Below the pieces are notes generated by a model that was not told where the DNA came from, ran no database searches, and saw only the letters and a list, made by a program, of their open reading frames with translations. 39,163 nucleotides of DNA, taken from IMG/VR virus record IMGVR_UViG_3300008963_000006, positions 1-39,163 of that record; one strand, given 5' to 3'. Positions 1,718-19,849 of this stretch are shown here, piece after piece. This stretch comes from a virus. The position numbers and the translations under genes were made by a program. Each line of letters begins with the position of its first letter. Within the stretch, counting starts at the first letter, position 1.

Positions 1718-3319
1718 ATGTCAACAGAAGACAAATTAGCACGTAGTATTGCGAGTACGCTGAACCGTTCAAATTCCGGCGGATCGGGAAAGATTGCGCA
1801 CTTCTTGAACGATAACGACAGTCCAACCAATGTGAGCCGATTTGTTCCCACGGGTTCCACGGTTTTGGATATGTTGATTTCAAACAAGCCCGATGGTGGG
1901 CTTCCTGTCGGCAAAATCGTGGAGTTTTACGGGCTTCCGGCTTGCATCCATCCCAGTACCAAAATTGATGTTCGTGTGGATGGCAATCATAAAACATGCA
2001 GTGCTGCAAAAATTCAAGGTCTCCTTGATCAATCATCTCTTGTTGAAGTTCCCACTAAAAACGACGAATGGACTCAAGTAACAGACTTTGTTCACAAGGG
2101 CATTCAAAAAAGTTACCGTGTGATAACAGATTCCGGAGATTCCATTGTGGTAAGTGAAAACCATCTCTTCTTCACAAACCAAGAATGGGTGTATACCAAA
2201 GACCTTGACCCGCATCAACATCAAATCATGAGTCAAGATGGGCTTGTTGACATTGCAGTGATTGAGTCTGCTGGAATGCAACCCACGGTTGATATCACGG
2301 TGGATCACCCGGATCAATGCTACTTTGCGCAAAACATGTTGCATCACAACACCGGAAAATCGTTGATTGCAAGCCACGTTCTTGCACACACTCAAAAGAT
2401 GGGTGGGCTTGCAGTCTATATTGACACTGAAAGTGCAGCCAAACCGGAGTTTCTGGAAACCATTGGAATTGATCTCAACAACCTTGTATACATTGCACAA
2501 AACCGTGCAGAACACATTTTTGCGGTGATTGAAAAGTGTATTCAGAAGGTCAAAAAAGAAGATAGTGATCGTTTCATCACGGTGGTTGTTGATTCCATTG
2601 CAGGCATGACCACGGAGAATGAAGACAGTGCAGATTACGCAAAAGAGGGGTATGCCACGGACAAAGCGATCATCTTGTCAAAAGCCATGCGCAAAATCAA
2701 CAAGATGATTGGAAGTGAGCAAGTTCTTTTGCTTTTCACAAATCAAGTCCGGCACAGCATGAACATGTATGGACCGGAATATACAACTCCAGGTGGACAA
2801 GCTGTGCCATTTCATTCCAGTGTTCGTGTTCATCTACGCAAGGCCAAAACCATTGCGAAAACCATCTCTGGCAAGAAACAGCAAGTTGGTGCAAAGTTGC
2901 GTCCCAAGGTGGAAAAGAATCGTCTTGCTCCGTCTGGACGATCTTGCGAATTTGATCTGTTCTTCAACACGGGGATTGATGATGTGGGAAGTTGGTGGGA
3001 TGTTCTCAAAGAGCATCAATGGATTAACCACAAGTCTCGTGGGTGGTATCTCATTGTTGGCGAAAAAGATGACGACGGGAATCCAATCTCTTGGTGGGCA
3101 GGACAAGGCCAAGAAACAACAGATGACAAGGATGATGCAAGGAATGTGCAAGAAGGTTCATTCAACGATTACGCAAAAGAAGATCCTGAATTTCGGAAGT
3201 TTTTACGCGACCGGTTAGAAAATAGCATCCTTGTCACATATAACCAAGATTGGACAGGCGACGATGATCTTGAGTATACTGAAGACGATACAACAACGGT
3301 TTCAGACCAAGACAGCTAA
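1718..3319 (+). CDS. uvsX: UvsX/RecA-family recombinase precursor with in-frame intein
   Basis: 533 aa precursor. Removing the 136-aa intein (residues 76-211) leaves 397 aa, close to T4 UvsX (391). The enzyme is an ATP-dependent strand-exchange protein for recombination-dependent replication. Joining the exteins restores the Walker A motif GLPA|TGKS. The Walker B-like strand is FITVVVDSI, followed later by LLLFTNQVR and TTPGGQAVPFHSSVR, a RecA-core signature for the ATP cap and loop region. The C-terminus is acidic (GDDDLEYTEDDTTT). Start ATG 1718 has no Shine-Dalgarno. The product cannot bind ATP properly until the intein is spliced. UvsX versus bacterial RecA is decided mainly by length and by the T4-like neighbours. 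Confidence 0.88.
   Translation: MSTEDKLARSIASTLNRSNSGGSGKIAHFLNDNDSPTNVSRFVPTGSTVLDMLISNKPDGGLPVGKIVEFYGLPACIHPSTKIDVRVDGNHKTCSAAKIQGLLDQSSLVEVPTKNDEWTQVTDFVHKGIQKSYRVITDSGDSIVVSENHLFFTNQEWVYTKDLDPHQHQIMSQDGLVDIAVIESAGMQPTVDITVDHPDQCYFAQNMLHHNTGKSLIASHVLAHTQKMGGLAVYIDTESAAKPEFLETIGIDLNNLVYIAQNRAEHIFAVIEKCIQKVKKEDSDRFITVVVDSIAGMTTENEDSADYAKEGYATDKAIILSKAMRKINKMIGSEQVLLLFTNQVRHSMNMYGPEYTTPGGQAVPFHSSVRVHLRKAKTIAKTISGKKQQVGAKLRPKVEKNRLAPSGRSCEFDLFFNTGIDDVGSWWDVLKEHQWINHKSRGWYLIVGEKDDDGNPISWWAGQGQETTDDKDDARNVQEGSFNDYAKEDPEFRKFLRDRLENSILVTYNQDWTGDDDLEYTEDDTTTVSDQDS
1943..2350 (+). other. Mini-intein in the UvsX P-loop
   Basis: Intein residues 76-211 (136 aa, no endonuclease domain). Block A starts CIHPSTKIDV with Cys1, block B is VVSENHLFF, block F is VDITVDHPDQCYFAQ, and block G ends MLHHN before Thr+1. 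The junctions therefore look canonical: Cys1, His-Asn end and a Thr nucleophile. Excision rejoins GLPA to TGKS. The size matches a splicing-only HINT domain. Confidence 0.92.
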
Positions 3320-6057: not shown

Positions 6058-9000
6058 ATGAAGAAACTAACACGAGCACAAATTCAAGACCTTGGTGAAT
6101 CCGTATCAAGAGAACAAGCCCTTGCATCCAGTAAAGAGTATTTTGGTGGCGGAAACATGGAAGCCACTAATTTTCTCAACAAATATGCACTCAAAGATTT
6201 TAATGGTCGGTATTATGAAAAAACACCGGATGACATGCATAACCGGCTTGCCGATGCGTTTGCTGAAGTGGAAGACGCATTTCCAAACGGAATGTCACGG
6301 GAAACCATTTATGACCTTCTCAAAGATTTCAATGGTCCGATCCCCCAAGGAAGCGTCATGAGTGCGGTCCGAAATCCGTTTCAATTGATTTCAACTGCAA
6401 ACTGTTTTGTTGTTCTTGAAACAGACGACGACAGTTATGGAAATATCATGAAAACGGATGAAGAACTTGCCCAAATCATGAAACGTCGCGGTGGTGTGGG
6501 AACTGATTTGTCCCATCTTCGCCCCAGAACCAGTGTTGTTCAAAATGCTGCAAGAACATCAACAGGAGCAGTCAGCTTTGCACATAGATATTCAAACACC
6601 ACTCGCGAAGTCGCACAGAATAACCGGCGTGGGGCTTTGATGCTGACTCTGGATTGTAGGCATCCCGATCTTGAAGAGTTCATCAACCTGAAGGCAGAAA
6701 AGGGCGCTGTCACAGGAGCTAATATTTCCGTGAAGTTTCATGATGATTTCATGGAAGCTGTAAAAAACAATGATACATACACGTTGCGGTATCCGGTTGA
6801 TGTGGAACCTGAAGATGCTGATATGACCAAAGAGGTTGACGCCAAACGCCTTTTTGATTTGTTTGTACGCAACAACTATGGACCCGGTGATGTTGAGGGA
6901 GCCGAACCGGGGGCCATATGGATGGATGAAATCCATCGTGAGAGTCCTGCGGGATGTTATCCGGGATTCAAAGAAATTTCAACCAATCCCTGCTTCTCGG
7001 GCGACACCAAAATTGCTGTTGCCGATGGTCGGGGTGCGGTATCAATCAAAGAACTTGCAGAACAAGGAGATGACGTTGATGTGTATGCAGCAAACCCAGA
7101 AACCGGGGATATTGAAATCAAACGAGGTCGGAATCCACGGGTTACGGGTACTGATAAACAGGTCGTTCGCGTGACATTCAGCCGGGGAAGTCATGTTGAC
7201 GTTACTCCAGATCATCCATTTTTGATGAAAGATGGAAGCAAAAAGCAAGCCAAAGACCTTGATCCCGGCGATTCAATTGCCCCGTTTACGAAGTACAAAG
7301 AAGACTCTTTTGGAAACGGAAATGAGTATTGGAGAATCAATACAAACTTCAAGGATACCAATCAACGCACCTTAGAACATCGTTTGATTGCGCGCCATTC
7401 CGATAAAACGAAGTGGGATGAATTGTATGATGAAAACAAGAAGTCCGGTTGGATGAGCGGTGGGCTTGTTGTTCACCATAAAGATTATGATGGTCTGAAT
7501 AATGACCCTGAAAACCTTGAGATTATGACTTTCAAGGAGCATAACAAGTACCATGCCGATCATGATACGAAAGGAACGAAAAATGGACGTTGGTGTGGCA
7601 CAACAAATCAAGAACTTCGTGAAATTGGAATTGGCTTTGCCGAAAACCTCGGACGCCGGTTTTCAAAGAAAGAATGGCACAAATACGCCGACAAACACAA
7701 TCTTCCAAAGGATGTAAGCGGAGAATATCGTTCAACTGACGAATACTCCAACGTGACGGAATTCGGAAAATGGTGTGCAGATCAAGCCGATGTTTCACAA
7801 TTCAACGGTATTGATCCACGGGTTGCCAAGACGTTTTTCCGTATGCTCCGTCAAGGGTATACAACGGAGATTCGTGAGATTGGCGAAAATCGTCATGAAG
7901 TATACGTTGAAAAAACGTGTGAACACTGTGGTTCAACGTTCATGAAGCATCATCAACAGCGAGAAGTTTCATATTGCAGCTTGTCATGTTCTTCACAGCG
8001 TCTTTCACAAAGCCAAAAAATGCAAGACGTTTATCGTGACAGAAGTGAACGATTCCAACAAGAAGCTAACCAAAAAAGGCAGCGTCAACTTGATGTGTTC
8101 ACAAGTCTTGCGTTTGAAATGGACAGAGATCCTTACATTTATGAGTGGAAGGATGAGTGTGAGCGTAGGGGCATTTCAAAACGGCTTCGCACAAAATACG
8201 GGTTTGACAATTACACCGACCTGAAAGAACATGCGGAGGCATACAACCACCGTGTTCAGTCTGTGGAATACTTGGGTGAAAGGGAGACGGTATACAATAT
8301 CACGGTAGATGATCATCACACGGTTGGAATTATAACTGAGGATGAAAACAACAAAACGGGTATTTTTGCATTCCAATGTGGCGAGCTTCCCTTGCCAGAT
8401 GGAGACTCGTGCCGGTTGCTTGCAATCAACTTGTATCCGTATGTTGAAAATCCATTTACCGATCAAGCTTGGTTTAACTTTGAACGGTTCCGCCGAGAAG
8501 TCCGCGCAAGCCAGCGAATCATGGATGACGTGGTTGAAATTGAACTGAACCATATCTCATGGATCATTGAAAAGGTGAAAAACGACCCGGAAGATCCTGT
8601 TGTCAAGCAACGAGAACTTAATCTTTGGAATAGAATCCTTGAGACGTGCCGCAAGGGGCGTCGTACAGGGCTTGGAACAACTGCCCTTGGGGACACCCTT
8701 GCTGCTCTTGGAATCCGATATGGAAGCAATGAGAGCATTCAGAAGGCAGATGAAATCTATCGGGAATTCAAACTTGCTGCATATCGTGAAAGTGTTGAAC
8801 TTGCAAAAGAGCGTGGTCCATTTCCAATGTGGGATCCCGATATTGAAAAGGATAACCCGTTCCTTCTTCGTATTCAAGAACAAGACCCCGAGTTGTATGC
8901 GGACATGCAAAAGCACGGACGCCGAAACATTGCTCTTTTGACCAATGCTCCAACGGGAACCGTGTCTACACTTGCACAAACGAGTAGTGGGATTGAGAAC

Positions 9001-9996
9001 GTGTTTATGCCGTACTATTTTCGCAAGCGCAAATTGAACCACGATGAAATGGATGTTGAGCCGGATTACGTTGATGATGTGGGAGATCGGTGGATTGAGT
9101 TTCCTGTGTTTCACCACAAACTCAAAACATGGTTTCAAGTCCAAGGCATTGAAAACCCCGAAGAGTTGAGCCGGGATGAATTGGACGAGTACATTGCACA
9201 AAGCCCGTATCACGGTGCAACAGTTGCGGATGTGGATTGGCGAAACAAAGTTCGTTTGCAAGCCGCAATTCAATCGCACATTGACCATTCTATTTCCGTG
9301 ACAGTGAATCTACCCGAAGATGTGGACATGGAAACGGTTCGCGACCTTTACATGATCAGTCATGAGTCTGGATGCAAGGGATGTACGATTTACAGAGAAG
9401 GAAGTCGTGATGCTGTTCTTTCCAATGAAAGCGTCAAAGATGAAACTCAAGAAATCCAACACAACGATGCACCCGACCGACCCGAAACATTGGAATGTGA
9501 CATTCACCGAATCCGTTATGGTGGAGACAATTGGAAGATCATCGTTGGGTTTTTGAACGAAAACCCGTATGAAGTGTTTGGATTTAAAACGGGTGGTGGA
9601 ACCGGAAACATCGTGAGGTTCACGGATTCAGACGGCAAATCCATTGATCGGGGCATTGTGCGCAAAAAAGGTGGTGGGGTGTATCACCTTGAAAGCCTTG
9701 ATGGAAAAACCATTGTCAAAGACATTGCAGAATATGCACCTGATGATGAAGCACGCAGCATGACCCGAATGATCAGTCTTGCACTTCGTCACGGTGCTCG
9801 TCTTGAATATGTCATTGAACAACTTGAGAAGGCCGAAGGCAGCGTTGTCAGCTTTTCCAAGGCTGTTTTGAGAGCAATCCGAGAGTATGTTGATGAATCA
9901 AACAAACATTGCATGGAATGTGAAGACGGGGGCCGTGTCGTGTATCAGGAAGGGTGTTTCAAATGTCTTGAATGTGGATCATCTCGCTGCGGCTAA
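6058..9996 (+). CDS. nrdJ: Adenosylcobalamin-dependent (class II) ribonucleotide reductase precursor with intein
   Basis: 1312 aa precursor. Removal of the 462-aa intein leaves 850 aa. It reduces ribonucleotides to deoxyribonucleotides using a B12 cofactor, without a separate radical subunit, and no nrdB-like gene is seen in the window. Recognisable parts are GGVGTDLSHLRP, NNRRGALMLTLD, the NP|CGELPLPDGDS active-site loop split by the intein, and NAPTGTVSTLAQTSSGIENVF. Next come SISVTVNLPEDV and GCKGCTIYREGSR (about 1105), typical of NrdJ. A C-terminal Cys-rich ribbon (CMECEDGG, CFKCLECGSSRCG) probably holds the thiols that re-reduce the active site. The catalytic thiyl cysteine is the +1 residue of the intein. 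It supplies dNTPs for phage synthesis together with ThyA. Confidence 0.9.
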   Translation: MKKLTRAQIQDLGESVSREQALASSKEYFGGGNMEATNFLNKYALKDFNGRYYEKTPDDMHNRLADAFAEVEDAFPNGMSRETIYDLLKDFNGPIPQGSVMSAVRNPFQLISTANCFVVLETDDDSYGNIMKTDEELAQIMKRRGGVGTDLSHLRPRTSVVQNAARTSTGAVSFAHRYSNTTREVAQNNRRGALMLTLDCRHPDLEEFINLKAEKGAVTGANISVKFHDDFMEAVKNNDTYTLRYPVDVEPEDADMTKEVDAKRLFDLFVRNNYGPGDVEGAEPGAIWMDEIHRESPAGCYPGFKEISTNPCFSGDTKIAVADGRGAVSIKELAEQGDDVDVYAANPETGDIEIKRGRNPRVTGTDKQVVRVTFSRGSHVDVTPDHPFLMKDGSKKQAKDLDPGDSIAPFTKYKEDSFGNGNEYWRINTNFKDTNQRTLEHRLIARHSDKTKWDELYDENKKSGWMSGGLVVHHKDYDGLNNDPENLEIMTFKEHNKYHADHDTKGTKNGRWCGTTNQELREIGIGFAENLGRRFSKKEWHKYADKHNLPKDVSGEYRSTDEYSNVTEFGKWCADQADVSQFNGIDPRVAKTFFRMLRQGYTTEIREIGENRHEVYVEKTCEHCGSTFMKHHQQREVSYCSLSCSSQRLSQSQKMQDVYRDRSERFQQEANQKRQRQLDVFTSLAFEMDRDPYIYEWKDECERRGISKRLRTKYGFDNYTDLKEHAEAYNHRVQSVEYLGERETVYNITVDDHHTVGIITEDENNKTGIFAFQCGELPLPDGDSCRLLAINLYPYVENPFTDQAWFNFERFRREVRASQRIMDDVVEIELNHISWIIEKVKNDPEDPVVKQRELNLWNRILETCRKGRRTGLGTTALGDTLAALGIRYGSNESIQKADEIYREFKLAAYRESVELAKERGPFPMWDPDIEKDNPFLLRIQEQDPELYADMQKHGRRNIALLTNAPTGTVSTLAQTSSGIENVFMPYYFRKRKLNHDEMDVEPDYVDDVGDRWIEFPVFHHKLKTWFQVQGIENPEELSRDELDEYIAQSPYHGATVADVDWRNKVRLQAAIQSHIDHSISVTVNLPEDVDMETVRDLYMISHESGCKGCTIYREGSRDAVLSNESVKDETQEIQHNDAPDRPETLECDIHRIRYGGDNWKIIVGFLNENPYEVFGFKTGGGTGNIVRFTDSDGKSIDRGIVRKKGGGVYHLESLDGKTIVKDIAEYAPDDEARSMTRMISLALRHGARLEYVIEQLEKAEGSVVSFSKAVLRAIREYVDESNKHCMECEDGGRVVYQEGCFKCLECGSSRCG
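6991..8376 (+). other. NrdJ intein with HNH endonuclease domain and C-terminal Gln
   Basis: Residues 312-773 (462 aa). Block A is CFSGDTKIAV (Cys1), block B is VDVTPDHPFLMKDG, block F is YNITVDDHHTVGIIT, and block G is GIFAFQ before Cys+1. The last residue is Gln, not Asn, and the penultimate residue is Phe rather than His. The core carries an HNH homing endonuclease (VVHHKDYDGLNNDPENL then a further His, about 471-500). A four-Cys cluster follows (CEHC ... CSLSC, about 621-645). Insertion is between NP and the catalytic Cys of NPCGE. Confidence 0.9.
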
Positions 9997-10018
9997 AAAA
10001 AAAAAGAGAGAGAGAGAG
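9995..10018. repeat. Poly-A / (AG)n simple repeat at nrdJ stop
   Basis: The TAA stop of nrdJ runs into an A-tract of about 11 bases and then about 7 AG units. It is one of several simple-sequence tracts in this genome. No function is assigned. Confidence 0.8.
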
Positions 10019-10053
10019 AAAGTCAACTCTCGTTTCACGCAGTCTTGACATAA

Positions 10054-10106
10054 AAAATGGTGCAATGCACGTACATATGAAAAAGATGCATTGCACCATT
10101 TTGTTA
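10054..10106 (+). terminator. Long hairpin, likely terminator after nrdJ
   Basis: A perfect 16-bp inverted repeat, AAAATGGTGCAATGCA (10054-10069) with its complement at 10087-10102, encloses a 17-nt loop. The right arm ends in TTTT and the left arm is preceded by an A-run, so it could terminate transcription in either direction. Confidence 0.72.
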
Positions 10107-10127
10107 TGCACACATATTCAAAACCAT

Positions 10128-10150
10128 ACACACACACACACACACACACA
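10128..10150. repeat. (AC)n microsatellite, about 11 units, in a 5' leader
   Basis: An uninterrupted AC tract ends five bases before the ATG at 10155, where a Shine-Dalgarno would be expected. Similar CA tracts occupy the leaders of the clamp and sulfotransferase genes. Confidence 0.95.
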
Positions 10151-10154
10151 TACC

Positions 10155-10697
10155 ATGAGTCAAGAATACCCAACAGAACGAGACGACGGCAAAGTATTGA
10201 ACCCATCAACAGATAATTGGGTGACACAAGGATATGCAGATGGACGCGGGTTCCTTGAAGAAGCCAAGGAATACACGCGTGAGCACTTCAAGAACAAGAG
10301 TGACGATCAAGAATTTCAAGAGCATGGATTGGATGATGTAGCTGAAAAGTTTGAAGATGCGGGGGTTCCGGTGAATGATCTCAATGACATGATGGAACGG
10401 GCAGAGGAAAGCATTCAACCTCACGAAGATTCATCGGAGGATTTCAATGCAATGACTGAAGAGGAGTTCATGAAGTCCATTGAAGAGGAACCGCAGCCGC
10501 AGCGCGGTGGTGATGAAAATTTCAAAGGAATTTACAATAGCAAATCTGTGCCCCAAACGTCGGAACGCTCATCATCATCATCATCATCTCAACGCCGATG
10601 GAATGAAGAACGTGACGGTGCCGAATATCGCTACGTGAGAACAGAACGTGGCGGGATGCGAAAAGAACGCATTGATGGCAGCGATGATAATTCATAA
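10155..10697 (+). CDS. Acidic protein of unknown function
   Basis: 180 aa. Not recognised. The open frame extends upstream to 9972 but there it would read through the hairpin and the CA tract (a His-Thr repeat), so the ATG at 10155 just after the tract is the sensible start. The protein is strongly acidic and probably mostly helical in its first 110 residues (LEEAKEYTREHF, DDVAEKFEDAG, MTEEEFMKSIEEE). A seven-Ser run near residue 140 is encoded by a TCA trinucleotide repeat at 10569-10587. The last 35 residues are Arg/Glu-rich (YRYVRTERGGMRKER). No membrane segment or cysteine cluster is seen. Position between nrdJ and the polymerase suggests a replication-linked role, but nothing in the sequence proves it. 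Confidence 0.65.
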   Translation: MSQEYPTERDDGKVLNPSTDNWVTQGYADGRGFLEEAKEYTREHFKNKSDDQEFQEHGLDDVAEKFEDAGVPVNDLNDMMERAEESIQPHEDSSEDFNAMTEEEFMKSIEEEPQPQRGGDENFKGIYNSKSVPQTSERSSSSSSSQRRWNEERDGAEYRYVRTERGGMRKERIDGSDDNS

Positions 10698-10714
10698 AAA
10701 ATTCTCACAAAACC

Positions 10715-10755
10715 CGTGTGTTTGATATTCACGACACACGATAAGTCACTTTTTT
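10715..10755 (+). terminator. Weak hairpin followed by T-run
   Basis: CGTGTGT (10715-10721) pairs with ACACACG (10734-10740), and a T6 run follows ten bases later. The separation from the T-run makes termination uncertain. The T-run is also part of a TTTTTAGAAT element found upstream of other genes. Confidence 0.35.
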
Positions 10756-10772
10756 AGAATAATATCGTTCAC

Positions 10773-11465
10773 ATGAATTTGAAAACCCCTTCTGACCCCA
10801 AAATCAAACGTAGGTTGGGGGAAAAAATTGAAGAGAAGATCAAAGAGTACCACCAATTCTTGAGAACTCCCCCCAAAGGAGAGCATTTTGAAGATTTGGT
10901 TTCACAAGCACTTATTGAAACTGGACATGCTTCACATGGTTGGTTTGACGGGGATCATGCCCAAGGCACCGATATATGGGATAGTCCATTTGGAAGTCTT
11001 TCATTGAAAACCAACAAGTTGTATGGAAAGAATGTGATCCGTGCTGACATGAGCAGCCACCGTCTTACATCGTTTGGAACGGATCTTGATGCCATGCTGG
11101 ACCACATCAAATCCAAGAAATCGGACTTCTATTTGTTGTGTACCCGACGGACAGACCGAGGTAAAGAATACCGAATCCGTGAGAAACAGGGAGGCGGATA
11201 TGAAGAATATGAGATATTCTTGATTCCGGCAAACTTTTTGTGTGTTAGGTCGTATGACTGGCATGAATATGATGGGGGATGGAAAGCGAATGTTTCTCCC
11301 GGATTCACGTTATCCATAGTAAAAAGCATGAGTAATCAATTTTGGATGCGTGGAATTCCGTATCAGCGGATCAAACCTTACTCTTTTAGAAGAATTCAAG
11401 TTAATCATCGGGACATGCCACATAAGATGTTAGAAATCCGTGGTGCAGATCCCGACCGAACATAA
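10773..11465 (+). CDS. Probable PD-(D/E)XK-fold nuclease of unknown role
   Basis: 230 aa. No close family recognised. The N-terminal half has a pattern resembling restriction-endonuclease-like folds: an acidic helix GEHFEDLVSQAL (about residues 36-47), then QGTDIWDSPFGSLSLKTNK (about 64-82), where the Asp and the SLKT lysine could be the D...(S/E)xK catalytic pair. The rest is beta-rich with many aromatic residues and ends in a basic stretch. The gene starts at ATG 10773 and ends 9 nt before the polymerase gene, so the two are probably co-transcribed. It could be a phage nuclease acting in recombination or host DNA breakdown, or a free-standing homing nuclease beside the intein-rich polymerase. 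The function is inference from a motif only. Confidence 0.55.
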   Translation: MNLKTPSDPKIKRRLGEKIEEKIKEYHQFLRTPPKGEHFEDLVSQALIETGHASHGWFDGDHAQGTDIWDSPFGSLSLKTNKLYGKNVIRADMSSHRLTSFGTDLDAMLDHIKSKKSDFYLLCTRRTDRGKEYRIREKQGGGYEEYEIFLIPANFLCVRSYDWHEYDGGWKANVSPGFTLSIVKSMSNQFWMRGIPYQRIKPYSFRRIQVNHRDMPHKMLEIRGADPDRT

Positions 11466-11474
11466 AACCCGTTT

Positions 11475-14400
11475 ATGTATCAGAATATTTACATAGAAAA
11501 CAAGTACACTCCCGATGCAAAAGTTCACATATGGGATGATGAAAGGGGGTATTCAGTTGAAGAATTCAACAACTACGGATATGTTATTGATGAAAACGGA
11601 AGACATGAGAGCATCTTTGGGGACCCACTAAAGAAATGCAAGTATGTAAGAAAAGCAACCAAAAACAAAGTCAAGCAAAAAACGGGGCGTGAAACGGTCA
11701 CGTTTGAAACCGACGTCCGTCCAGAAACACGGTATCTCGTTGACAACTATTTGAATGACGACGAACCAAGCAAAGGCCACACCATACTTTTCTTTGATAT
11801 TGAGGTTTCAATGCATCCTGAAGTGCCGGATGTTAAGCGTGCCCAAAATACCATCACGTCCATTGCGTATTACGATGATGTGAGTCAAGAAAAGGTGGTC
11901 TTTATTTTGGATCAGAATGATGAGATTTCAAACGAGTTTCAAGCGGACGACACCACGGTTGTTCCGTTTGACAACGAAAAAAACCTTCTTGAACATTTTG
12001 TGAATGCATGGCGTGGTATTGATCCGACAATAGTGGTTGGATTCAACAGCGACTTTTTTGACATTCCATATCTTTATCGTCGTCTGAAACGCCTGTTTGA
12101 TGAATCATTTGCAAACCGTCTGTCTCCAATTGGGATTGTGGATTACAACGAGCGCAAAGACAGATTTTACATCGCGGGTATATCCAGTCTGGATTATTAC
12201 CAACTCTATAAAAACTTCACGTTCAGTCAGCTTGATAGTTATAGCCTTGATAGTGTCGCTGAAGAGGAATTGGGTTATGGAAAAGTGACATACAAAGGGC
12301 GTGAATATCAAGTGAATGGAGAAACCCGAGTTGTTCGTGATCTGGACGATCTATTTGAACTTGACATTGACCGGTTTGTTCGGTACAACATGGATGATGT
12401 TATGTTGCTTGTTGAGATGGATGATAAGTTGGACTTCATTGATCTCGCCCGCAAAATTTGTCATCTGGGACACGTTCCGTATGAAGATATTTACAATTCC
12501 AGTCGGTATATTGATGGTGCCATTTTAACGTTCTTGAAACGGCGTGGTTTGGTGGCTCCAGACAAAAAACGGTTTCGCCTCAACATTGGCAAAACCTGTC
12601 CACAAGGGTCCAATGAATTGGTTCTTGAAAACCAAATTCCCAAGTATATTCCAAAGCGGGGAACAATCGGCATTTGGAAGTCTACAGCCACCAAAAAGAA
12701 GTATGAGTACGTTGATCGGGCAGACAACCGCCTTGTCCTCAAAAACCGTCTTGAGTTTGATGTATTTCCGGAGATGGATCTGAGTTTGGAATATCCGGGA
12801 GCCTTCGTCAAAAGCCCCGATCCTGGGTTGTACGAATGGGTTTATGACTTGGATCTCACGTCCATGTATCCGTCTATCATCATGACACTCAACATTTCTC
12901 CCGAAACCAAGGTGGGGCGCGTGTATGATTGGGATGCAGAGCAGGCGCTTCAAACCGACGATCCCGACATGCAATATGACGTGTACCTTTTTGATCGTCA
13001 CAAGGTGCTTACGATCAAGAAATCCAAGTTATTTCAGCTTCTTAAAAAACGGAACCTGAGCATTGCAAGTAACGGTGTCTTTTATCGCAACGACATTGAA
13101 GGCACAATTCCACGCATTCTTGAAAAATGGTTCACGCTTCGTCAAGATTACAAAGGCACTCGGAATGAATGGCGCGAAAAAGCCACCGAAATCACGGATC
13201 AGCGTGGAAATGTTCTTGATGGAGAAAGTCAAGAAGACCTTGATGAATTCAATTCAAAGGCTGAATATTATGACAAGCTGCAGCACGTTCACAAGATTTT
13301 GATTAACTGTTTTTCTGAAGACACGGAAATCATGACTCTTGATGGGGTGAAAAATGTAAAGGATGTCAAGAAAGGAGACCTTGTTTATTCTTTAAACCGT
13401 GAAACAATGGACGTTGAAATCAAGCCCGTTTCTGAAACTTCGGTTAAGGAGTATGATGGTGATATGGTGAATGTTGAGACAAACCATATTGATTTTTCCA
13501 TCACACCCAACCACAGACTTTTCACGCAAAAATACTCTTGCTACAAAAAAGAGTATTCCGATTTTGATTGGGAATATGCAGCGGATTTGTTGGAAACTGA
13601 CGTTTCAAAGCAGCGAAGACTTCCATCAATTTCTTTTGGTGAAATGAATCACACGAGTGCGGCACCATTTTTTAACACCTATCTCTATGTCAAAGAGAAT
13701 AATCTTTTTGATGTGTCTGACATGGAGATAGACGACAAAAAGATTCGTTGTGAACGGAAAAACTCCAAAAAGCAACCGTATATCTTTAAGACGAACGATT
13801 ATTTAGAATTTTTGGGGTGGTACATCTCCGAAGGCAGTTTGTATAGCAGCACACCTAAAAAATATGCAAATGGAACAGCGCGAGGTAAATCATATCGGAT
13901 ATGCATTTCCCAACAAAAAAATGGGGGGCGAAAAGAAATTGAAGGCTTGCTTGATAGAATGAATTTGTCATATACAAAAAACGACAAAGACTATTTCATT
14001 TGCAACAAATTCTTGTACATGCTTCTTGAATTTGACTGTGGATCAAATTCATTTGACAAAAAAATACCGTCATGGGTATGGAGTCTTTGTAATTACCAAA
14101 AGAAGCATATTTACAAAACTCTTATGCTCGGAGATGGCGATAAACGGGGTGATCGGTATTCAACGTCAAGTGAAGCACTTAAAAATGACATGATCCGATT
14201 GGGATGTCATTTGGGTATTAACATATATCCAACCCATCGTGACAAGGGATGCTATAGACTCCAAGTATCCAAAAAACGCGGAATTTCACCAACTTTCAAG
14301 AAAAAGCATGTTTCCGTTTCTGAAAACAAGAGTGGGTATGTATACTGCCTTGAAGTTGAAGATAACCACACTGTTTTAGCTGGGCGGAATGGAAAGTTCA

Positions 14401-14969
14401 ATTGGATCGGTCAGAGCGTCTACGGAGTTCTTGGTCTTTCCAGTTTCCGGTTTTACGACGTGGACAATGCACAGGCCGTCACGGACACCGGGCGCAGTTT
14501 GATTCAATTCACTCAAAAAATGGGTGACAAGTATTACAACCAAATTCTTGGAACAGACGCGTCTCACTGTATTTACATGGACACGGATTCCACGCCCGGA
14601 GATACCGAGATTGAAACCAACCTGGGTCGGATGCCAATCCGTGATCTGTTTGATCATCTTCAACAACAAGATGGTGTTCGTCAATTCAAGGATCCACAGG
14701 GTCGTTTATTTGTGTTCTCTGACGGTTCAATCACAACTCCCACCTACACCACCAATTCGTTGTTTGAGTCCGATATAACGTACATAGAGCGTCATAGCGT
14801 ACCGGAAAAAGATCAGTATAAGATCACAACTGAAAATGGAGAATCTGTTGTGGTTACGGAAGACCATTCCATTATGGTTGAAACAACTGATGGGGAGTTG
14901 GTCAAGAAAAAACCAACGAGTCTGCAACATGATGATGTGATTGTTACCATATCTCGGAACACATCGTGA
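11475..14969 (+). CDS. 43: Family B DNA polymerase, N-terminal part, with a cis intein and a trans-splicing IntN
   Basis: 1164 aa. It holds the polymerase N-domain, the 3'-5' exonuclease and most of the palm. Exo I is ILFFDIEVS (Asp108, Glu110), Exo II is VVGFNSDFFDIPYLYRR, and Exo III is RYNMDDVMLLV. Motif A is DLTSMYPSII (Asp460). Motif B, KILIN|SVYG, is interrupted by the intein at residues 612-980. Motif C, YMDTD, ends at residue 1038. The final 126 residues are the N-half of a second intein, and the frame then closes with TGA. The gene cannot make an active polymerase alone, because the second catalytic half of motif C and the thumb are on the gene at 15260. After splicing, the two products would give about 946 aa (T4 gp43 is 898). 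Confidence 0.92.
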   Translation: MYQNIYIENKYTPDAKVHIWDDERGYSVEEFNNYGYVIDENGRHESIFGDPLKKCKYVRKATKNKVKQKTGRETVTFETDVRPETRYLVDNYLNDDEPSKGHTILFFDIEVSMHPEVPDVKRAQNTITSIAYYDDVSQEKVVFILDQNDEISNEFQADDTTVVPFDNEKNLLEHFVNAWRGIDPTIVVGFNSDFFDIPYLYRRLKRLFDESFANRLSPIGIVDYNERKDRFYIAGISSLDYYQLYKNFTFSQLDSYSLDSVAEEELGYGKVTYKGREYQVNGETRVVRDLDDLFELDIDRFVRYNMDDVMLLVEMDDKLDFIDLARKICHLGHVPYEDIYNSSRYIDGAILTFLKRRGLVAPDKKRFRLNIGKTCPQGSNELVLENQIPKYIPKRGTIGIWKSTATKKKYEYVDRADNRLVLKNRLEFDVFPEMDLSLEYPGAFVKSPDPGLYEWVYDLDLTSMYPSIIMTLNISPETKVGRVYDWDAEQALQTDDPDMQYDVYLFDRHKVLTIKKSKLFQLLKKRNLSIASNGVFYRNDIEGTIPRILEKWFTLRQDYKGTRNEWREKATEITDQRGNVLDGESQEDLDEFNSKAEYYDKLQHVHKILINCFSEDTEIMTLDGVKNVKDVKKGDLVYSLNRETMDVEIKPVSETSVKEYDGDMVNVETNHIDFSITPNHRLFTQKYSCYKKEYSDFDWEYAADLLETDVSKQRRLPSISFGEMNHTSAAPFFNTYLYVKENNLFDVSDMEIDDKKIRCERKNSKKQPYIFKTNDYLEFLGWYISEGSLYSSTPKKYANGTARGKSYRICISQQKNGGRKEIEGLLDRMNLSYTKNDKDYFICNKFLYMLLEFDCGSNSFDKKIPSWVWSLCNYQKKHIYKTLMLGDGDKRGDRYSTSSEALKNDMIRLGCHLGINIYPTHRDKGCYRLQVSKKRGISPTFKKKHVSVSENKSGYVYCLEVEDNHTVLAGRNGKFNWIGQSVYGVLGLSSFRFYDVDNAQAVTDTGRSLIQFTQKMGDKYYNQILGTDASHCIYMDTDSTPGDTEIETNLGRMPIRDLFDHLQQQDGVRQFKDPQGRLFVFSDGSITTPTYTTNSLFESDITYIERHSVPEKDQYKITTENGESVVVTEDHSIMVETTDGELVKKKPTSLQHDDVIVTISRNTS
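13308..14414 (+). other. PolB intein 1 (motif B site) with LAGLIDADG-like endonuclease
   Basis: Residues 612-980 of the polymerase precursor (369 aa). Block A is CFSEDTEIMT (Cys1), block B is DFSITPNHRLFTQ, block F is VYCLEVEDNHTVLAG, and the end is FNWIGQ before Ser+1. The terminal residue is Gln and the penultimate Gly, both departures from His-Asn. Two dodecapeptide-like endonuclease motifs are visible: YLEFLGWYISEGSL and TLMLGDGDKRGDR. Insertion between KILIN and SVYG is the known motif B (pol-b) site. Confidence 0.9.
14589..14969 (+). other. N-terminal half of split PolB intein (motif C site)
   Basis: 126 residues after YMDTD, beginning STPGDTEIET (Ser1) with block B VVVTEDHSIMVE. The reading frame stops at 14967. 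There is no block F or G on this polypeptide, and the matching C-half is at 15260-15406. Confidence 0.88.
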
Positions 14970-15073
14970 ATCATGCTGTTGCAATGGTGTGATATATTAC
15001 ATACCACCACCAAATCAAAGTATTTCAGACAACATACATTCGTTTTTCTGTATAAAATCATCACTACAATACA
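14970..15073 (+). promoter_or_regulatory. Spacer inside the split polymerase locus with possible internal promoter
   Basis: An AT-rich stretch containing GATATATTAC (14991-15000) and TGTATAAAATC (15050-15060). It could supply separate transcription of the IntC half. No -35 partner can be assigned with confidence. Confidence 0.25.
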
Positions 15074-15253
15074 ATGGGAACAACACGAAGCAAGCACATC
15101 CGAATCGTTAGTGGTCCACACAAAAGTCCGGAAAAGGTTCGCAAAGCATACCGGGAAATAAACTTTCACTGGGATGGGAAACGCCGTTATGTGTACGTCG
15201 TTGAAGATCCGGACATTCAATTTGTATCCGACACTCACGTAAAAGAAGTTTAG
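15074..15253 (+). CDS. 59-aa basic protein between the split intein halves
   Basis: 59 aa, not recognised. It begins MGTTRSKHIRIVSGP, continues with a Lys/Arg-rich helix-like stretch (KSPEKVRKAYREI, about 17-29), then a strand-rich part with WDGKRRYVYVVEDP (about 33-46). The stop is 6 bases before the IntC gene start, so it is probably translated with it. It is too short to be an HNH, LAGLIDADG or GIY-YIG endonuclease of normal size and shows no such motif. In known fractured split-intein loci this position is often filled by a homing endonuclease gene, so this may be an unrelated passenger or a small DNA-binding protein. ATG start with no Shine-Dalgarno. Confidence 0.55.
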   Translation: MGTTRSKHIRIVSGPHKSPEKVRKAYREINFHWDGKRRYVYVVEDPDIQFVSDTHVKEV

Positions 15254-15259
15254 ACCCAC

Positions 15260-15406
15260 ATGCAAGAAATTCACGATGAAATATGCGTGAACAAAACTCG
15301 TGTGAGTTCAGTTGAGAAGCTGGATTCACACGAGGATTTTGTTTACGACCTTGGCATCAAAGACACACCACATTGCTTTTTTGGAAACAACGTTCTGATT
15401 TCAAAT
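15260..15406 (+). other. C-terminal half of split PolB intein
   Basis: 49 residues ending VLISN, followed by the Ser+1 nucleophile. Asn is terminal as usual, but the penultimate residue is Ser instead of His. Length and blocks match the C-half of inteins broken at the endonuclease position. It pairs with 14589-14969. Confidence 0.88.
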
Positions 15407-16240
15407 TCGGTGTTTTATTCAGCCGTTCCTTTGGTTGAACACCGAGATCCAGATTTTGATGTCAATGATGAAGAATATATGACACAAGAGATTCTGGATA
15501 TTGCCGACGATGTCCAAAAGTTCATCAACGATTCGTATGATTTTTATTCGGATCGTCTGCTGAATGCGGGAAGAAATGATCATTGGCTTGAGATAAAGCA
15601 AGAAATGATTGCACGTGCGGGGCTTTGGATTCGCAAAAAGCGATATGCACAATGGATCATCAATGATGAAGGCGATCCCGTTCAAAGGCCGGACTGGAAG
15701 GGCATTGAAGTAGTTCGCAGTGATTTTCCAAATGCATTCAAAGAGCATCTTAAAGAAGTTTTGATTGAGATTCTTAATCAGAAGCCCAAGCAAGACATTG
15801 ATCGGCGCATTTTGGATTTCAAAAACAGCTTACATGAATTGGAATTGGACAAGATTTCAAATCCCACGGGGGTCAATGGCATTGAAAAATACGACGATGA
15901 CCAACGCCGTGTTGGAACGTACTACAAGCATACTCCGATTCATGTGAAATCCTCCGTCAACTATAATGATCTCATTGATATTTTGGGGATCGTTGCGGAA
16001 CCCATTCGGAGCGGTACAAAAATTCGTTGGGTTTATCTTCTCAACAATCCATATGGGTTCACGGAAATGGCATATACGGGACAAGATGATCCTGATGAGG
16101 TCATGGATTTTATTGAAGATCATGTAGATTACAACAAAATGTACGAAAAAGTTGAGTCAGCACTTGACACCGTATATACTGCACGCGGATGGTCACTTCC
16201 AACCAAATCCAGTTCTGTAATGAACAATCTCTTTTCTTGA
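15260..16240 (+). CDS. 43: IntC fused to the C-terminal part of the family B DNA polymerase
   Basis: 326 aa. Residues 1-49 are the C-half of a split intein: MQEIHDEICVNKTRVSSVE, then block F VYDLGIKDTPHCFFG and block G NNVLISN before Ser+1. Residues 50-326 are polymerase: SVFYSAVPL completes motif C (YMDTD|SVFY). Palm/thumb sequence follows, with KSVxx-like basic motif equivalents around WIRKKRYAQWI and QRRVGTYYKHTPIH, and a C-terminal tail ending SSSVMNNLFS. In T4-like systems this tail end binds the sliding clamp. Its partner is the product of 11475-14969. Protein trans-splicing would rebuild the polymerase. The clamp gene follows at 16360. Confidence 0.9.
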   Translation: MQEIHDEICVNKTRVSSVEKLDSHEDFVYDLGIKDTPHCFFGNNVLISNSVFYSAVPLVEHRDPDFDVNDEEYMTQEILDIADDVQKFINDSYDFYSDRLLNAGRNDHWLEIKQEMIARAGLWIRKKRYAQWIINDEGDPVQRPDWKGIEVVRSDFPNAFKEHLKEVLIEILNQKPKQDIDRRILDFKNSLHELELDKISNPTGVNGIEKYDDDQRRVGTYYKHTPIHVKSSVNYNDLIDILGIVAEPIRSGTKIRWVYLLNNPYGFTEMAYTGQDDPDEVMDFIEDHVDYNKMYEKVESALDTVYTARGWSLPTKSSSVMNNLFS

Positions 16241-16296
16241 TCAAATCTTCATCAAACATAACATGCAGGTGAGATACATATAGTTGTGCATAACAC

Positions 16297-16339
<43 letters not shown>

Positions 16340-16359
16340 ACCCAAAACAGGTTTTGAAC

Positions 16360-17169
16360 ATGGAAACACTTGAACATGCGCCGCCACAAGAAACACAGCA
16401 GCAAAATCAAAAATCCCCGATTACCAAAGAAAACCTTATGGGGTTTTTGAACAGGTATTACCTGGATGGCGAAATTGAACGCACTCGGGTTTCATATTCC
16501 CATGACACACAAGTTTTGACCACGTCATTTAGATCAACAGACGAATCTATTGTTGGGACGGTTGATCTCAAAGCATTTCCGTTTCATCGTGATTTTGATG
16601 TTGCTATTCATGATACCACGCGATTGAAAAAGCTGATTGGTATTTTGGAGCAAGATATTGACATGGAGCTTGAATGGGTTCATGAACCAGTCAGCATTTA
16701 CTTCACAGATGATTTCAAGAAAGTTCGTTACATCCTTGGAAACAAGGTTGCAATTTCAAAGGTGAGCGGAGAACCCAATGCTGATATTGATTGGAACATT
16801 GAGTTTGACCTTGAACCCACCTTTGTGTCCAACTTCAAATCCGGAGTTAAAGCCCTTGAACATGGTTCATTTGCGATTGACACGTCGGATGATGGCCGCA
16901 TGAAAATTGTTCTTGGGTACATGAATCGTGGATCAAACAACAGTGTCAACCTTTATCCGGACCCGGACACGTTTAACTTTTCACCCAAGCCCAACAAACC
17001 GCTGGTTTTTAACGGAAAGCGGTGTACAAAGATGTTTAGTGCGAACGACGGATCTGTTGAGTCACGTTGCCAAATTAGCAGTGATATGGAGATCATGAAA
17101 ATGACGTTTTCAAACGATCAGTTCAATAGCACGTATTATATGTCTGCAATCAACCCAGGCAACATGTAG
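16360..17169 (+). CDS. 45: Sliding clamp, gp45-like
   Basis: 269 aa from ATG 16360. A TTG six bases upstream is in frame but less likely. The trimeric processivity ring that holds the polymerase on DNA. Length is above T4 gp45 (228 aa), partly through a Gln/Pro-rich N-terminal extension (PPQETQQQNQ). The two-domain clamp pattern shows as alternating strands: VSYSHDTQVLTTSFRS, GTVDLKAFPF, DTTRLKKLIGIL, VSIYFTDDFKKVRYILG, then a second repeat with FVSNFKSGVKAL, MKIVLGYMNRG, VFNGKRCTKMFSAND and MKMTFSNDQFNSTYYM. Identity rests on fold-like pattern, size and position between polymerase and clamp-loader genes. A (CA)19 tract occupies its leader. Confidence 0.83.
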   Translation: METLEHAPPQETQQQNQKSPITKENLMGFLNRYYLDGEIERTRVSYSHDTQVLTTSFRSTDESIVGTVDLKAFPFHRDFDVAIHDTTRLKKLIGILEQDIDMELEWVHEPVSIYFTDDFKKVRYILGNKVAISKVSGEPNADIDWNIEFDLEPTFVSNFKSGVKALEHGSFAIDTSDDGRMKIVLGYMNRGSNNSVNLYPDPDTFNFSPKPNKPLVFNGKRCTKMFSANDGSVESRCQISSDMEIMKMTFSNDQFNSTYYMSAINPGNM

Positions 17170-18191: not shown

Positions 18192-18395
18192 GTGAACATT
18201 TACGTTTTTACATTTGACAACGGAACTTCTGAAGAAGTGCGTGGCAATGAAATCAACTTTGAAAATGGAACCATTTCAGTGTATAATGAAGATGAAAATT
18301 TGTCGTATATAACGTATGAAAACAAGGTTCTCAGTGTTAAAATAACACAAAACAGCGAAGATTCAGAGAGAACTCTATTAACTGAAAACAAATAA
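18192..18395 (+). CDS. Small beta-rich protein of unknown function
   Basis: 67 aa from GTG 18192, 14 bases after the gp44 stop. A GTG at 18147 would overlap gp44 and add 15 residues of unlikely sequence. Not recognised. The sequence alternates hydrophobic and polar residues (IYVFTFDNGTSEEVRG, GTISVYNEDENLSYITYENKVLSVKI), suggesting a single beta-sheet domain. It is acidic, with no Cys. It lies inside the clamp-loader operon and is probably co-transcribed. Confidence 0.5.
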   Translation: MNIYVFTFDNGTSEEVRGNEINFENGTISVYNEDENLSYITYENKVLSVKITQNSEDSERTLLTENK

Positions 18396-18407
18396 CCAGA
18401 TTATATT

Positions 18408-18665
18408 ATGATGAACGATGACAATAACAATAGTTCCGAAAACAAAGGTATGGAAGGTCAGACACAGCAACTTGACATTGATCCTTCAAAACTTGATGAC
18501 TATCATTGCGAGGAGTGTGACAATGACTCGTTTGTGAGTGCATTCTTTGCAAAGCGGATTAGCAAGTTTATGTCTAAGTCCGGAAAGCCTGGAATCGTTC
18601 CTTACATGGAAACCATTGCTTGTAGTAAATGTGGACACGTGAACCAAGAATTGAAACCATCTTAA
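18408..18665 (+). CDS. Zinc-ribbon protein of unknown function
   Basis: 85 aa. Two CxxC knuckles are visible, CEECDNDSF near residue 34 and CSKCGHVN near 73, separated by a basic stretch (FFAKRISKFMSKSGKPG). This is the layout of a treble-clef or zinc-ribbon fold. The N-terminal 30 residues are Asn/Asp/Gln-rich and probably flexible. Small zinc ribbons of this kind are common in T4-like genomes and their function is mostly unknown. It lies between gp44 and gp62 genes with an FmdB-like ribbon just downstream, so it may act with the clamp loader or transcription machinery, but this is inference. Either ATG 18408 or ATG 18411 can start it. Confidence 0.62.
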   Translation: MMNDDNNNSSENKGMEGQTQQLDIDPSKLDDYHCEECDNDSFVSAFFAKRISKFMSKSGKPGIVPYMETIACSKCGHVNQELKPS

Positions 18666-18674
18666 AAAAAAAAA

Positions 18675-18884
18675 ATGCCAACGTATTGCTACAAGTGTAC
18701 TAAATGTGCCAACACGAAAACCGTGAAACAATCATTTAATGATCCAATACCAACTTGCCAAAAATCACACAAGCCTATCAAGATGGTTCGGGATTATATG
18801 TCCGAGGGTGGGGCTGTTGCTCATTTCAAAGGCTCCGGCTTCCACTCAACGGACTACAACGCATCCGAGGGGAACGGTCGTTGA
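18675..18884 (+). CDS. FmdB-family zinc-ribbon protein
   Basis: 69 aa. It starts MPTYCYKCTKC, the FmdB/CxxC regulatory-type signature. A second, incomplete knuckle (CQKSHKP) has one cysteine lost. The C-terminal GSGFHSTDYNASEG matches the GSGFYsTDY ending of the family. FmdB-like proteins are small zinc proteins whose role is not well defined. The ATG follows directly on a run of about 11 A bases with no Shine-Dalgarno. Loss of the final cysteine may weaken metal binding. Confidence 0.75.
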   Translation: MPTYCYKCTKCANTKTVKQSFNDPIPTCQKSHKPIKMVRDYMSEGGAVAHFKGSGFHSTDYNASEGNGR

Positions 18885-18915
18885 AATCTCTTGAATCTCA
18901 AAAAACACAAAAAGC

Positions 18916-19380
18916 ATGGCAACAAAATCGTTGTGGGACCACGTCAATCAAATCAAGGATCACCAAGAACCAAACTACTGGGAGACGCTTTCAGAAGCCG
19001 ACAAACGCACGTTTAGCACATACATGATCAATAGAGTGCTTTCCATGCGCAAAGAACTTTGTGGCGTTATCAACCAGATCCAGCATCTCACTGAAGTCAT
19101 GTCGGATGAAATGGTTCACAAACTTTACACCAGCTTGTTGCCACCGGATTCCTCATACTATCCATACATCAAGAAGCAAAACGCGTCAAACCGAATTTCA
19201 TGGGTTGTTGAAAAGCTGGCTGAACATTTTGAGTGTTCAAAGTTACAAGCCCGTGAATATTACGATGTATGCATGGTTTCACCGGAAAAAAAGCGTCAAC
19301 TGGTAGAATTCATGAAAAGCATGTATCCATTAACAAAAGATCAAATCAAACAGTTAGACAATGAAATCACAGGAACTTGA
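18916..19380 (+). CDS. 62: Clamp-loader small subunit, gp62-like
   Basis: 154 aa, a little shorter than T4 gp62 (187). A non-ATPase partner that joins four gp44 subunits in the loader. The N-terminus LWDHVNQIKDHQEPNYWETLSE and the MINRVLSMRKE helix match the phage gp62 pattern, followed by a helical C-terminal half (KLYTSLLPPDSSYYPYIKK, REYYDVCMVSPEKKRQLVEFM). It is separated from gp44 by three small genes, unlike T4 where 62 and 44 are adjacent. The stop overlaps the next gene by 20 bases, showing operon packing. Confidence 0.78.
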   Translation: MATKSLWDHVNQIKDHQEPNYWETLSEADKRTFSTYMINRVLSMRKELCGVINQIQHLTEVMSDEMVHKLYTSLLPPDSSYYPYIKKQNASNRISWVVEKLAEHFECSKLQAREYYDVCMVSPEKKRQLVEFMKSMYPLTKDQIKQLDNEITGT

Positions 19381-19849
19381 TTTTCAAATTTCGCATCTCA
19401 AATCGCAATTGCAAGATGGTTCATCGGGATCCATTGACGTGTCCGAGTTTGACGATCTTGTAGATACCCTGCACGACATGGGGTATGAGATCGTAGAACA
19501 ATCCACACAACCCCGATCAACGTCTCACCAACAATTTCTACACCGCCGCCAAACGTTGGATGAAATGGCACGGGGCATCCAAGAAGCCAAAAATCCGGCG
19601 TACGCAATGGATGATGAACACGATTTCCACAATAATTTTCGGGTGATTGCAAACATTCTTGATGTGGATGAAATGGTGGTTTGGGCTGTCTATTATCTTA
19701 AACACATCATCGCGGTGTTGAGTTATGCAAAGGACCCATCCACTCCACAGGCAGAGCCACTTGATGAGCGGTTTGCAGATATTCGCAATTACACCGAATT
19801 TGGATTCAGCATGTACAAAGAACGCCATGAAACAGAAAATTCACAATAA
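19361..19849 (+). CDS. Unknown helical protein overlapping gp62 gene
   Basis: 162 aa, not recognised. ATG 19361 lies inside the end of the clamp-loader gene. The first 20 residues form a likely coiled segment (LDFQISHLKSQLQ), then FDDLVDTLHDMGYEIVEQ, and a hydrophobic helix VVWAVYYLKHIIAVLSYAK around residues 107-125. That helix is too polar at its ends to be a sure membrane segment. The overlap suggests translational coupling to the clamp loader. Confidence 0.6.
   Translation: MKSQELDFQISHLKSQLQDGSSGSIDVSEFDDLVDTLHDMGYEIVEQSTQPRSTSHQQFLHRRQTLDEMARGIQEAKNPAYAMDDEHDFHNNFRVIANILDVDEMVVWAVYYLKHIIAVLSYAKDPSTPQAEPLDERFADIRNYTEFGFSMYKERHETENSQ

What the first reader, a model, noticed from the sequence alone, without database searches (positions are those of the whole stretch)
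11475..16240. DNA polymerase encoded as two genes that need trans-splicing at the catalytic motif C
The first gene ends in an intein N-half directly after YMDTD, and the second starts with an intein C-half directly before SVFY. The split falls between the two catalytic pieces of PolB motif C, so neither product is a polymerase. Split PolB inteins at this same site are known from Nanoarchaeum equitans, and fractured split-intein genes are known in marine phage metagenomes. A split polymerase in a T4-like phage with a separate cis intein in motif B would give a two-step maturation of one enzyme.
Basis: partly seen in the sequence, partly recalled or inferred. Interest (0 to 1): 0.82.

Follow-up and report, generated by a model that had tools for sequence, protein, structure and literature searches.

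The report
Split-intein DNA polymerase of a phage
A phage makes its DNA polymerase as two separate proteins that should be stitched together by the two halves of a self-splicing element; the reading is right, but the same split at the same spot is already known in many phages and has been studied in the test tube.

Summary
ORF 11475-14969 ends in a 126-residue intein N-half directly after YMDTD of PolB motif C; ORF 15260-16240 begins with a 49-residue intein C-half directly before SVFY. Ligation, plus removal of a separate cis intein at motif B, gives a 946-residue family-B polymerase. Stops in all three frames lie between the halves and the frames differ, so one sequencing error cannot explain it. 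Catalytic residues are in place, and N plus C aligns end to end with the Aes123 PolB1 split intein of T4-like Aeromonas phages (PDB 9hth, E 3e-11), which is published and trans-splices in vitro. The same fracture occurs in 56 other loci (near-copies included) of phages and IMG/VR contigs; 16 of them lack an endonuclease-sized gap, as here. So this is a new, divergent member of a known kind, in a polymerase lineage whose nearest relatives lack this intein. Two corrections: both catalytic aspartates of DTD are on the N-half, and the arrangement is not new for T4-like phages. Trans-splicing itself is inferred. By-products of more interest: a viral contig with two inteins two residues apart in motif C, and a near-identical pair showing fractured and contiguous states of one intein.

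The parts
11475..14969 (+). Gene 1: PolB N-part (exonuclease, palm up to motif C) + motif-B cis intein + split-intein N-half
   Evidence: ORF; PF03104, PF00136, phrog_262 11-522
13308..14414 (+). Cis intein at motif B (KILIN^SVYG), 369 aa, Cys1, C-terminal Gln (NGKFNWIGQ|S), LAGLIDADG-like motifs FLGWYISEG and LMLGDGDK (by eye)
   Evidence: TIGR01445 at aa 612-684 and TIGR01443 at 955-973; homologue at the same site in LR756508 (L001)
14574..14588 (+). YMDTD of PolB motif C, last residues of the N-extein; both catalytic Asp
   Evidence: sequence
14589..14966 (+). Split-intein N-half, 126 aa: Ser1, NX motif Arg-His (ERHSV), block B TEDH
   Evidence: TIGR01445 3.7e-7; alignment A1, S1/H69/K74/T90/D92/H93 invariant; AlphaFold pLDDT 91.5, structural neighbours are inteins
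14970..15259 (+). 290-bp spacer; no promoter-, terminator- or intron-like element found
15074..15253 (+). 59-aa orphan ORF in the slot where relatives often have an endonuclease gene; codon usage looks coding
   Evidence: codon score 0.206 against an out-of-frame maximum of 0.001; no homologue
15260..16240 (+). Gene 2: split-intein C-half + PolB C-part (rest of palm, thumb, LFS tail)
   Evidence: ORF; phrog_262 581-846 and PF00136 259-349
15260..15406 (+). Split-intein C-half, 49 aa: block F VYDLG..PHCFF, block G LISN; penultimate residue Ser instead of the usual His
   Evidence: alignment A3

Best explanation
The locus is a fractured PolB gene carrying a naturally split class-1 intein (Ser1/Ser+1) at the PolB motif-C site. 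The two precursors are made separately. The 126-aa N-half and 49-aa C-half associate and fold into one HINT domain, Ser1 attacks the Asp-Ser junction, the N-part passes to Ser+1, Asn49 of the C-half cyclises, and a 946-residue polymerase plus two intein pieces result. The motif-B cis intein (Cys1...Gln|Ser) must excise itself as well. Shown here: sequence anatomy, homology to experimentally studied split inteins, intact catalytic residues, no other element found in the spacer. Inferred: that both splicing reactions occur and that the spliced enzyme is the active form.
For: Anatomy and frames. N+C aligns end to end with the Aes123 PolB1 split intein, PDB 9hth, E 3.3e-11. S1, H69 (NX motif, typical of Ser1 inteins per PMC10189870), T90, D92, H93 are invariant across 28 sequences. 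AlphaFold model of the N-half, pLDDT 91.5, with inteins including Neq Pol 5oxx and 9hth among the nearest structures. 56 other loci with the same fracture, 16 of them without an endonuclease-sized gap. Published relatives trans-splice in vitro (PMC11923092, PMC12707363).
Against: No biochemical data for this pair. The penultimate His is Ser (also the case, from own knowledge, in the active Npu DnaE intein). The intein sits on a long branch (1.28 changes per column). No clear ribosome-binding site before 15260, but none stands out for the other genes in this window either.
Confidence: 0.92

Rival explanations
1. The intein is dead: a former cis intein broken by mutation, or an assembly error; the phage polymerase is non-functional or a second polymerase is used.
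For: Divergent intein, missing penultimate His; the record is a 39-kb fragment, so another polymerase elsewhere cannot be excluded.
Against: Several independent changes would be needed (stops in all frames, frame change, new ATG); the break lies at the canonical split point shared by 56 other loci; catalytic residues and coding-like codon usage kept on both halves.
Confidence: 0.04
2. The halves work as a non-covalent two-subunit polymerase and splicing is dispensable, like gp43A/43B of Aeromonas phage 25.
For: Split 43A/43B of phage 25 co-purify and have polymerase activity without splicing (PMC2988022).
Against: Here intact intein halves lie exactly at the junction; an unspliced product would carry 126 and 49 extra residues beside the catalytic Asp pair.
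Confidence: 0.03
3. The spacer is an intron removed at RNA level, so that the intein is cis in the mRNA (compare the intein plus intron reported in the terminase gene of Campylobacter phage IBB_35).
For: The 290-bp spacer is long enough for a small ribozyme; the IBB_35 precedent (PMC3322345).
Against: No Rfam intron at gathering or relaxed threshold; the spacer folds no better than shuffles (z 1.27); a coding-like ORF fills much of it.
Confidence: 0.01

Closest known systems
Aes123 PolB1 split intein (T4-like Aeromonas salmonicida phages; PDB 9hth, PMC11923092)
   Same: Same host protein, motif-C region, Ser1/Ser+1 chemistry, typical split point (120 + 39 aa there, 126 + 49 here); end-to-end alignment E 3.3e-11; same YxDTD^S junction in the relatives Aes516 and AS-gz
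   Different: About 35% intein identity (Aes516/AS-gz); Aes516/AS-gz gp43 is further broken upstream of motif B and shows no motif-B cis intein; halves overlap (Aes516) or flank another ORF (AS-gz)
PolB split intein of Pseudomonas jumbo phage MIJ3/PA5oct (PMC6892783)
   Same: Same site and junction (YGDTD^S), same split point, 40% intein identity
   Different: A 562-aa HNH endonuclease gene lies between the halves; no motif-B intein
[quoted passage not shown]
   Same: PolB split inteins with Ser at 1 and +1, NX motif, 115-120 + 39-46 aa; LCGC14 is highly active
   Different: Not compared residue by residue here (sequences not on hand)
Nanoarchaeum equitans Pol split intein (PDB 5oxx)
   Same: Split PolB intein at motif C (site from own knowledge); structural neighbour of the N-half model, Z 7.1 over 67 residues
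   Different: Archaeal cellular gene, far diverged; not the nearest relative by sequence
Cis PolB mini-intein of Salicola phage SCTP-2
   Same: Homologous intein in PolB motif C
   Different: Contiguous gene, site two residues earlier (YGD^TDS)

Membership tests
Naturally split inteins at PolB motif C (Aes123 PolB1 type) | Host protein is a family-B DNA polymerase and insertion is in motif C | tested here: met
   phrog_262, PF00136; YMDTD^SVFY
Naturally split inteins at PolB motif C (Aes123 PolB1 type) | N- and C-halves on separate ORFs, split at the usual endonuclease position (~115-126 + ~39-49 aa) | tested here: met
Naturally split inteins at PolB motif C (Aes123 PolB1 type) | Sequence homology of both halves to the type member | tested here: met
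   9hth, residues 3-173, E 3.3e-11
Naturally split inteins at PolB motif C (Aes123 PolB1 type) | Ser1/Ser+1 with NX-motif His preceded by Arg/Lys | tested here: met
   S1, RH at 68-69 of the N-half, +1 Ser (definition from PMC10189870)
Naturally split inteins at PolB motif C (Aes123 PolB1 type) | Block B TxxH, block F Asp, C-terminal Asn | tested here: met
   TEDH, VYDLG...ISN
Naturally split inteins at PolB motif C (Aes123 PolB1 type) | Penultimate His in block G (common, not defining) | tested here: not met
   Ser instead; not a required residue in known inteins (own knowledge: Npu DnaE)
Naturally split inteins at PolB motif C (Aes123 PolB1 type) | Protein trans-splicing activity | not testable with these tools
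   Needs expression of both halves
Fractured genes with a free-standing endonuclease between the halves | Homing endonuclease gene between the halves | tested here: not met
   Only a 290-bp spacer with a 59-aa orphan ORF; 16 other split loci also have a gap under 400 bp

The most novel reading that the evidence does not exclude
Polymerase production in this phage is gated by two ordered splicing events, motif-B cis excision followed by motif-C trans-splicing, so that the two reactions act as a timing switch for replication and are not only tolerated parasites.
Probability: 0.04. Interest if true: 0.6.

Novelty: new member of a known kind. Interest (0 to 1): 0.27.

Why it matters
It adds a divergent natural PolB split intein in a polymerase lineage whose nearest relatives lack this intein, combined with a motif-B cis intein in the same enzyme, a pair not seen in the other loci examined. 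Such Ser1/Ser+1 split inteins are sought as protein-ligation tools. The comparison set also shows that the fractured state is widespread in viral contigs, often without an endonuclease gene, and can interconvert with the contiguous state between near-identical phages.

Tried and rejected
Sequencing error or frameshift: rejected on stops and frames. Intron in the spacer: Rfam strict and relaxed scans and RNA folding gave nothing; the miRNA-family matches are chance. Remnant of an endonuclease in the spacer: no DNA or protein similarity to any fetched locus, to PHROGs, Pfam or the phage collection. Promoter or terminator between the halves: none. Lateral gain of the intein: intein identity (31-43%) exceeds that of the C-extein (24-32%) among carriers and the nearest polymerases lack it, but the nearest split relative in the extein tree (L060) is also among the nearest in the intein tree, and the C-extein may simply evolve faster, so gain versus loss is left open. 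Scans with plain protein queries found few close relatives; the N-half alignment found the family. Dassa et al. 2009 is not held, so its content is from own knowledge and from citations in other papers. A joint model of the two intein halves was not made (the tool folds single, unaltered proteins).

Full report
What is there. ORF 11475-14969 (1164 aa) and ORF 15260-16240 (326 aa) together encode one family-B DNA polymerase of the T4 gp43 kind (phrog_262 positions 11-522 and 581-846; PF03104, PF00136). The first ORF carries a 369-aa cis intein at motif B (KILIN^SVYG, aa 612-980) and ends with a 126-aa intein N-half that begins directly after YMDTD. The second ORF begins with a 49-aa intein C-half that ends ...LISN directly before SVFY.

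It is real. The N-half alone scores above the curated cut-off of the intein N-terminal model TIGR01445 (E 3.7e-7). N plus C matches PDB 9hth from residue 3 to 173 of 175 with E 3.3e-11; 9hth is the fused Aes123 PolB1 split intein (title). The N-half model reaches pLDDT 91.5 and its nearest solved structures are inteins, among them 5bkh, 5o9j, the N. equitans Pol split intein 5oxx and 9hth (Z 6-8 is middling, but the top rows are all intein structures). Between the halves there are stops in all three frames, the halves are in different frames, and the C-half has its own ATG just after an in-frame stop at 15251. One base error cannot join them.

Catalytic anatomy. Ser1, the NX motif Arg-His (ERHSV), the block-B TEDH, the block-F Asp (VYDLG) and the terminal Asn are present, with Ser at +1. 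The NX histidine preceded by Arg or Lys is described as the signature of Ser1/Ser+1(Thr+1) inteins (PMC10189870). The penultimate His is replaced by Ser; from own knowledge the active Npu DnaE split intein also has Ser there, so this does not speak against splicing. Correction to the finding: both aspartates of the DTD motif lie on the N-side; the C-side begins with the Ser of motif C.

Mechanism (inferred). Two precursors associate through the intein halves, fold as one HINT domain and trans-splice by the class-1 oxyester route. The motif-B intein excises in cis; its C-terminal residue is Gln and its penultimate residue Gly, shared with the homologue at the same site in the 484-kb phage LR756508 (L001), so the variant is at least conserved. 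Nothing here shows the order of the two reactions.

How common it is. With a profile of the N-half I collected loci from IMG/VR and phage records. After removal of identical N-halves, 63 loci have both halves: 57 split (window included) and 6 contiguous (some remaining rows are near-copies). In 40 split loci a gap of about 0.9-1.9 kb, most often with one ORF of about 290-580 aa, separates the halves; a few of these ORFs have weak nuclease-like Pfam matches (DUF559/MTES_1575, Vsr), one is annotated as HNH endonuclease (MIJ3), and one is a TnpB-like protein (L043). In 17, the window among them, the gap is under 400 bp. The insertion point comes in two versions two residues apart: YxD^TDS (Ser1/Thr+1) and YxDTD^S (Ser1/Ser+1); the window has the second.

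Published knowledge. Split PolB inteins at this place are described and partly assayed: Aes123 PolB1 from T4-like Aeromonas phages (PMC11923092), CP21 PolB1, LCGC14 PolB2 and GOM-OPS-1 PolB2 (PMC12707363), MIJ3 (PMC6892783). GenBank already annotates Aes516 gp43B1/B2 as carrying N- and C-inteins. The finding is therefore a new member of a known kind.

Evolution. In the C-extein tree the window groups with LR756508 (96/92) and then with polymerases that lack this intein (Microcystis phage Mel-JY01 and three IMG/VR contigs; 88/91); the next branch is a split carrier, L060 (98/96). In the intein tree the window groups with L060 and L052 (93/91) on a long branch. Intein identities to carriers (31-43%) exceed C-extein identities (24-32%). 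Gain into this lineage and loss from its relatives both remain possible. The fractured and contiguous states interconvert: L071 (contiguous) and L064 (halves about 0.95 kb apart with a 331-aa ORF between) are 97.5% and 93.2% identical on the two sides of the gap.

The spacer. 290 bp, no promoter, terminator, intron or unusual RNA fold. A 59-aa ORF (15074-15253) has codon usage like the neighbouring genes (0.206; out-of-frame controls never exceed 0.001; in-frame mean 0.30) but no relative. It may be a small gene that sits where others have an endonuclease.

Is the combination special? A cis intein plus a split intein in one polymerase also occurs in L052 and L082, where by eye the cis intein lies in the exonuclease domain after SGWN, and two cis inteins in one PolB are known from Thermococcales (own knowledge). 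The particular pair, motif-B cis and motif-C split, was seen only in the window among the loci examined.

Verdict. Its novelty is low. The most interesting by-product is L115, where two inteins occupy both motif-C sites of one polymerase with only Thr-Asp between them.

Noticed in passing
L115 (IMGVR_UViG_3300021431_000095) 7563-10070 +: Two 166-aa mini-inteins, 34% identical to each other, in one PolB ORF, separated by a two-residue extein...IYGD-[SVAGDS...LVHN]-TD-[SVSGDT...LVHN]-SAY. Both neighbouring motif-C sites are occupied at once. No paper on such a case turned up.
   Followed up: partly
L071 5308-5847 and L064 3981-5472: Near-identical PolB inteins (97.5% and 93.2% DNA identity on the two sides), contiguous in L071, fractured by about 0.95 kb with an ORF in L064: recent conversion between cis and split states, apparently at a short A-rich repeat.
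   Followed up: partly
L043 8416-9606 +: The ORF between the intein halves is a TnpB-like protein (OrfB_IS605, Cas12f1-like TNB) where relatives have an endonuclease-like ORF.
   Followed up: no
1718-3319: UvsX-like recombinase with a cis mini-intein in its P-loop (GLPA^TGKS; Cys1...HHN|Thr), about 136 aa.
   Followed up: partly
6058-9996: B12-dependent ribonucleotide reductase (NrdJ type) with an intein carrying an HNH endonuclease. The window thus has four inteins in three replication or nucleotide genes (UvsX, NrdJ, two in PolB).
   Followed up: no
L001 (LR756508.1) 9001-16925: PolB broken upstream of motif C by about 3 kb holding four ORFs, a motif-B cis intein, and a LAGLIDADG-like cis intein at YTD^TDS in the second piece; the clamp loader (18316-19710) also has a P-loop intein by eye. 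How the broken polymerase is rejoined is unclear.
   Followed up: partly
L059 5016-8321 and L062: A type-4 uracil-DNA glycosylase-like domain is fused in frame ahead of the PolB N-part that ends in the intein N-half.
   Followed up: no
window, gene starts: No Shine-Dalgarno-like motif stands out before the main genes (by eye).
   Followed up: no
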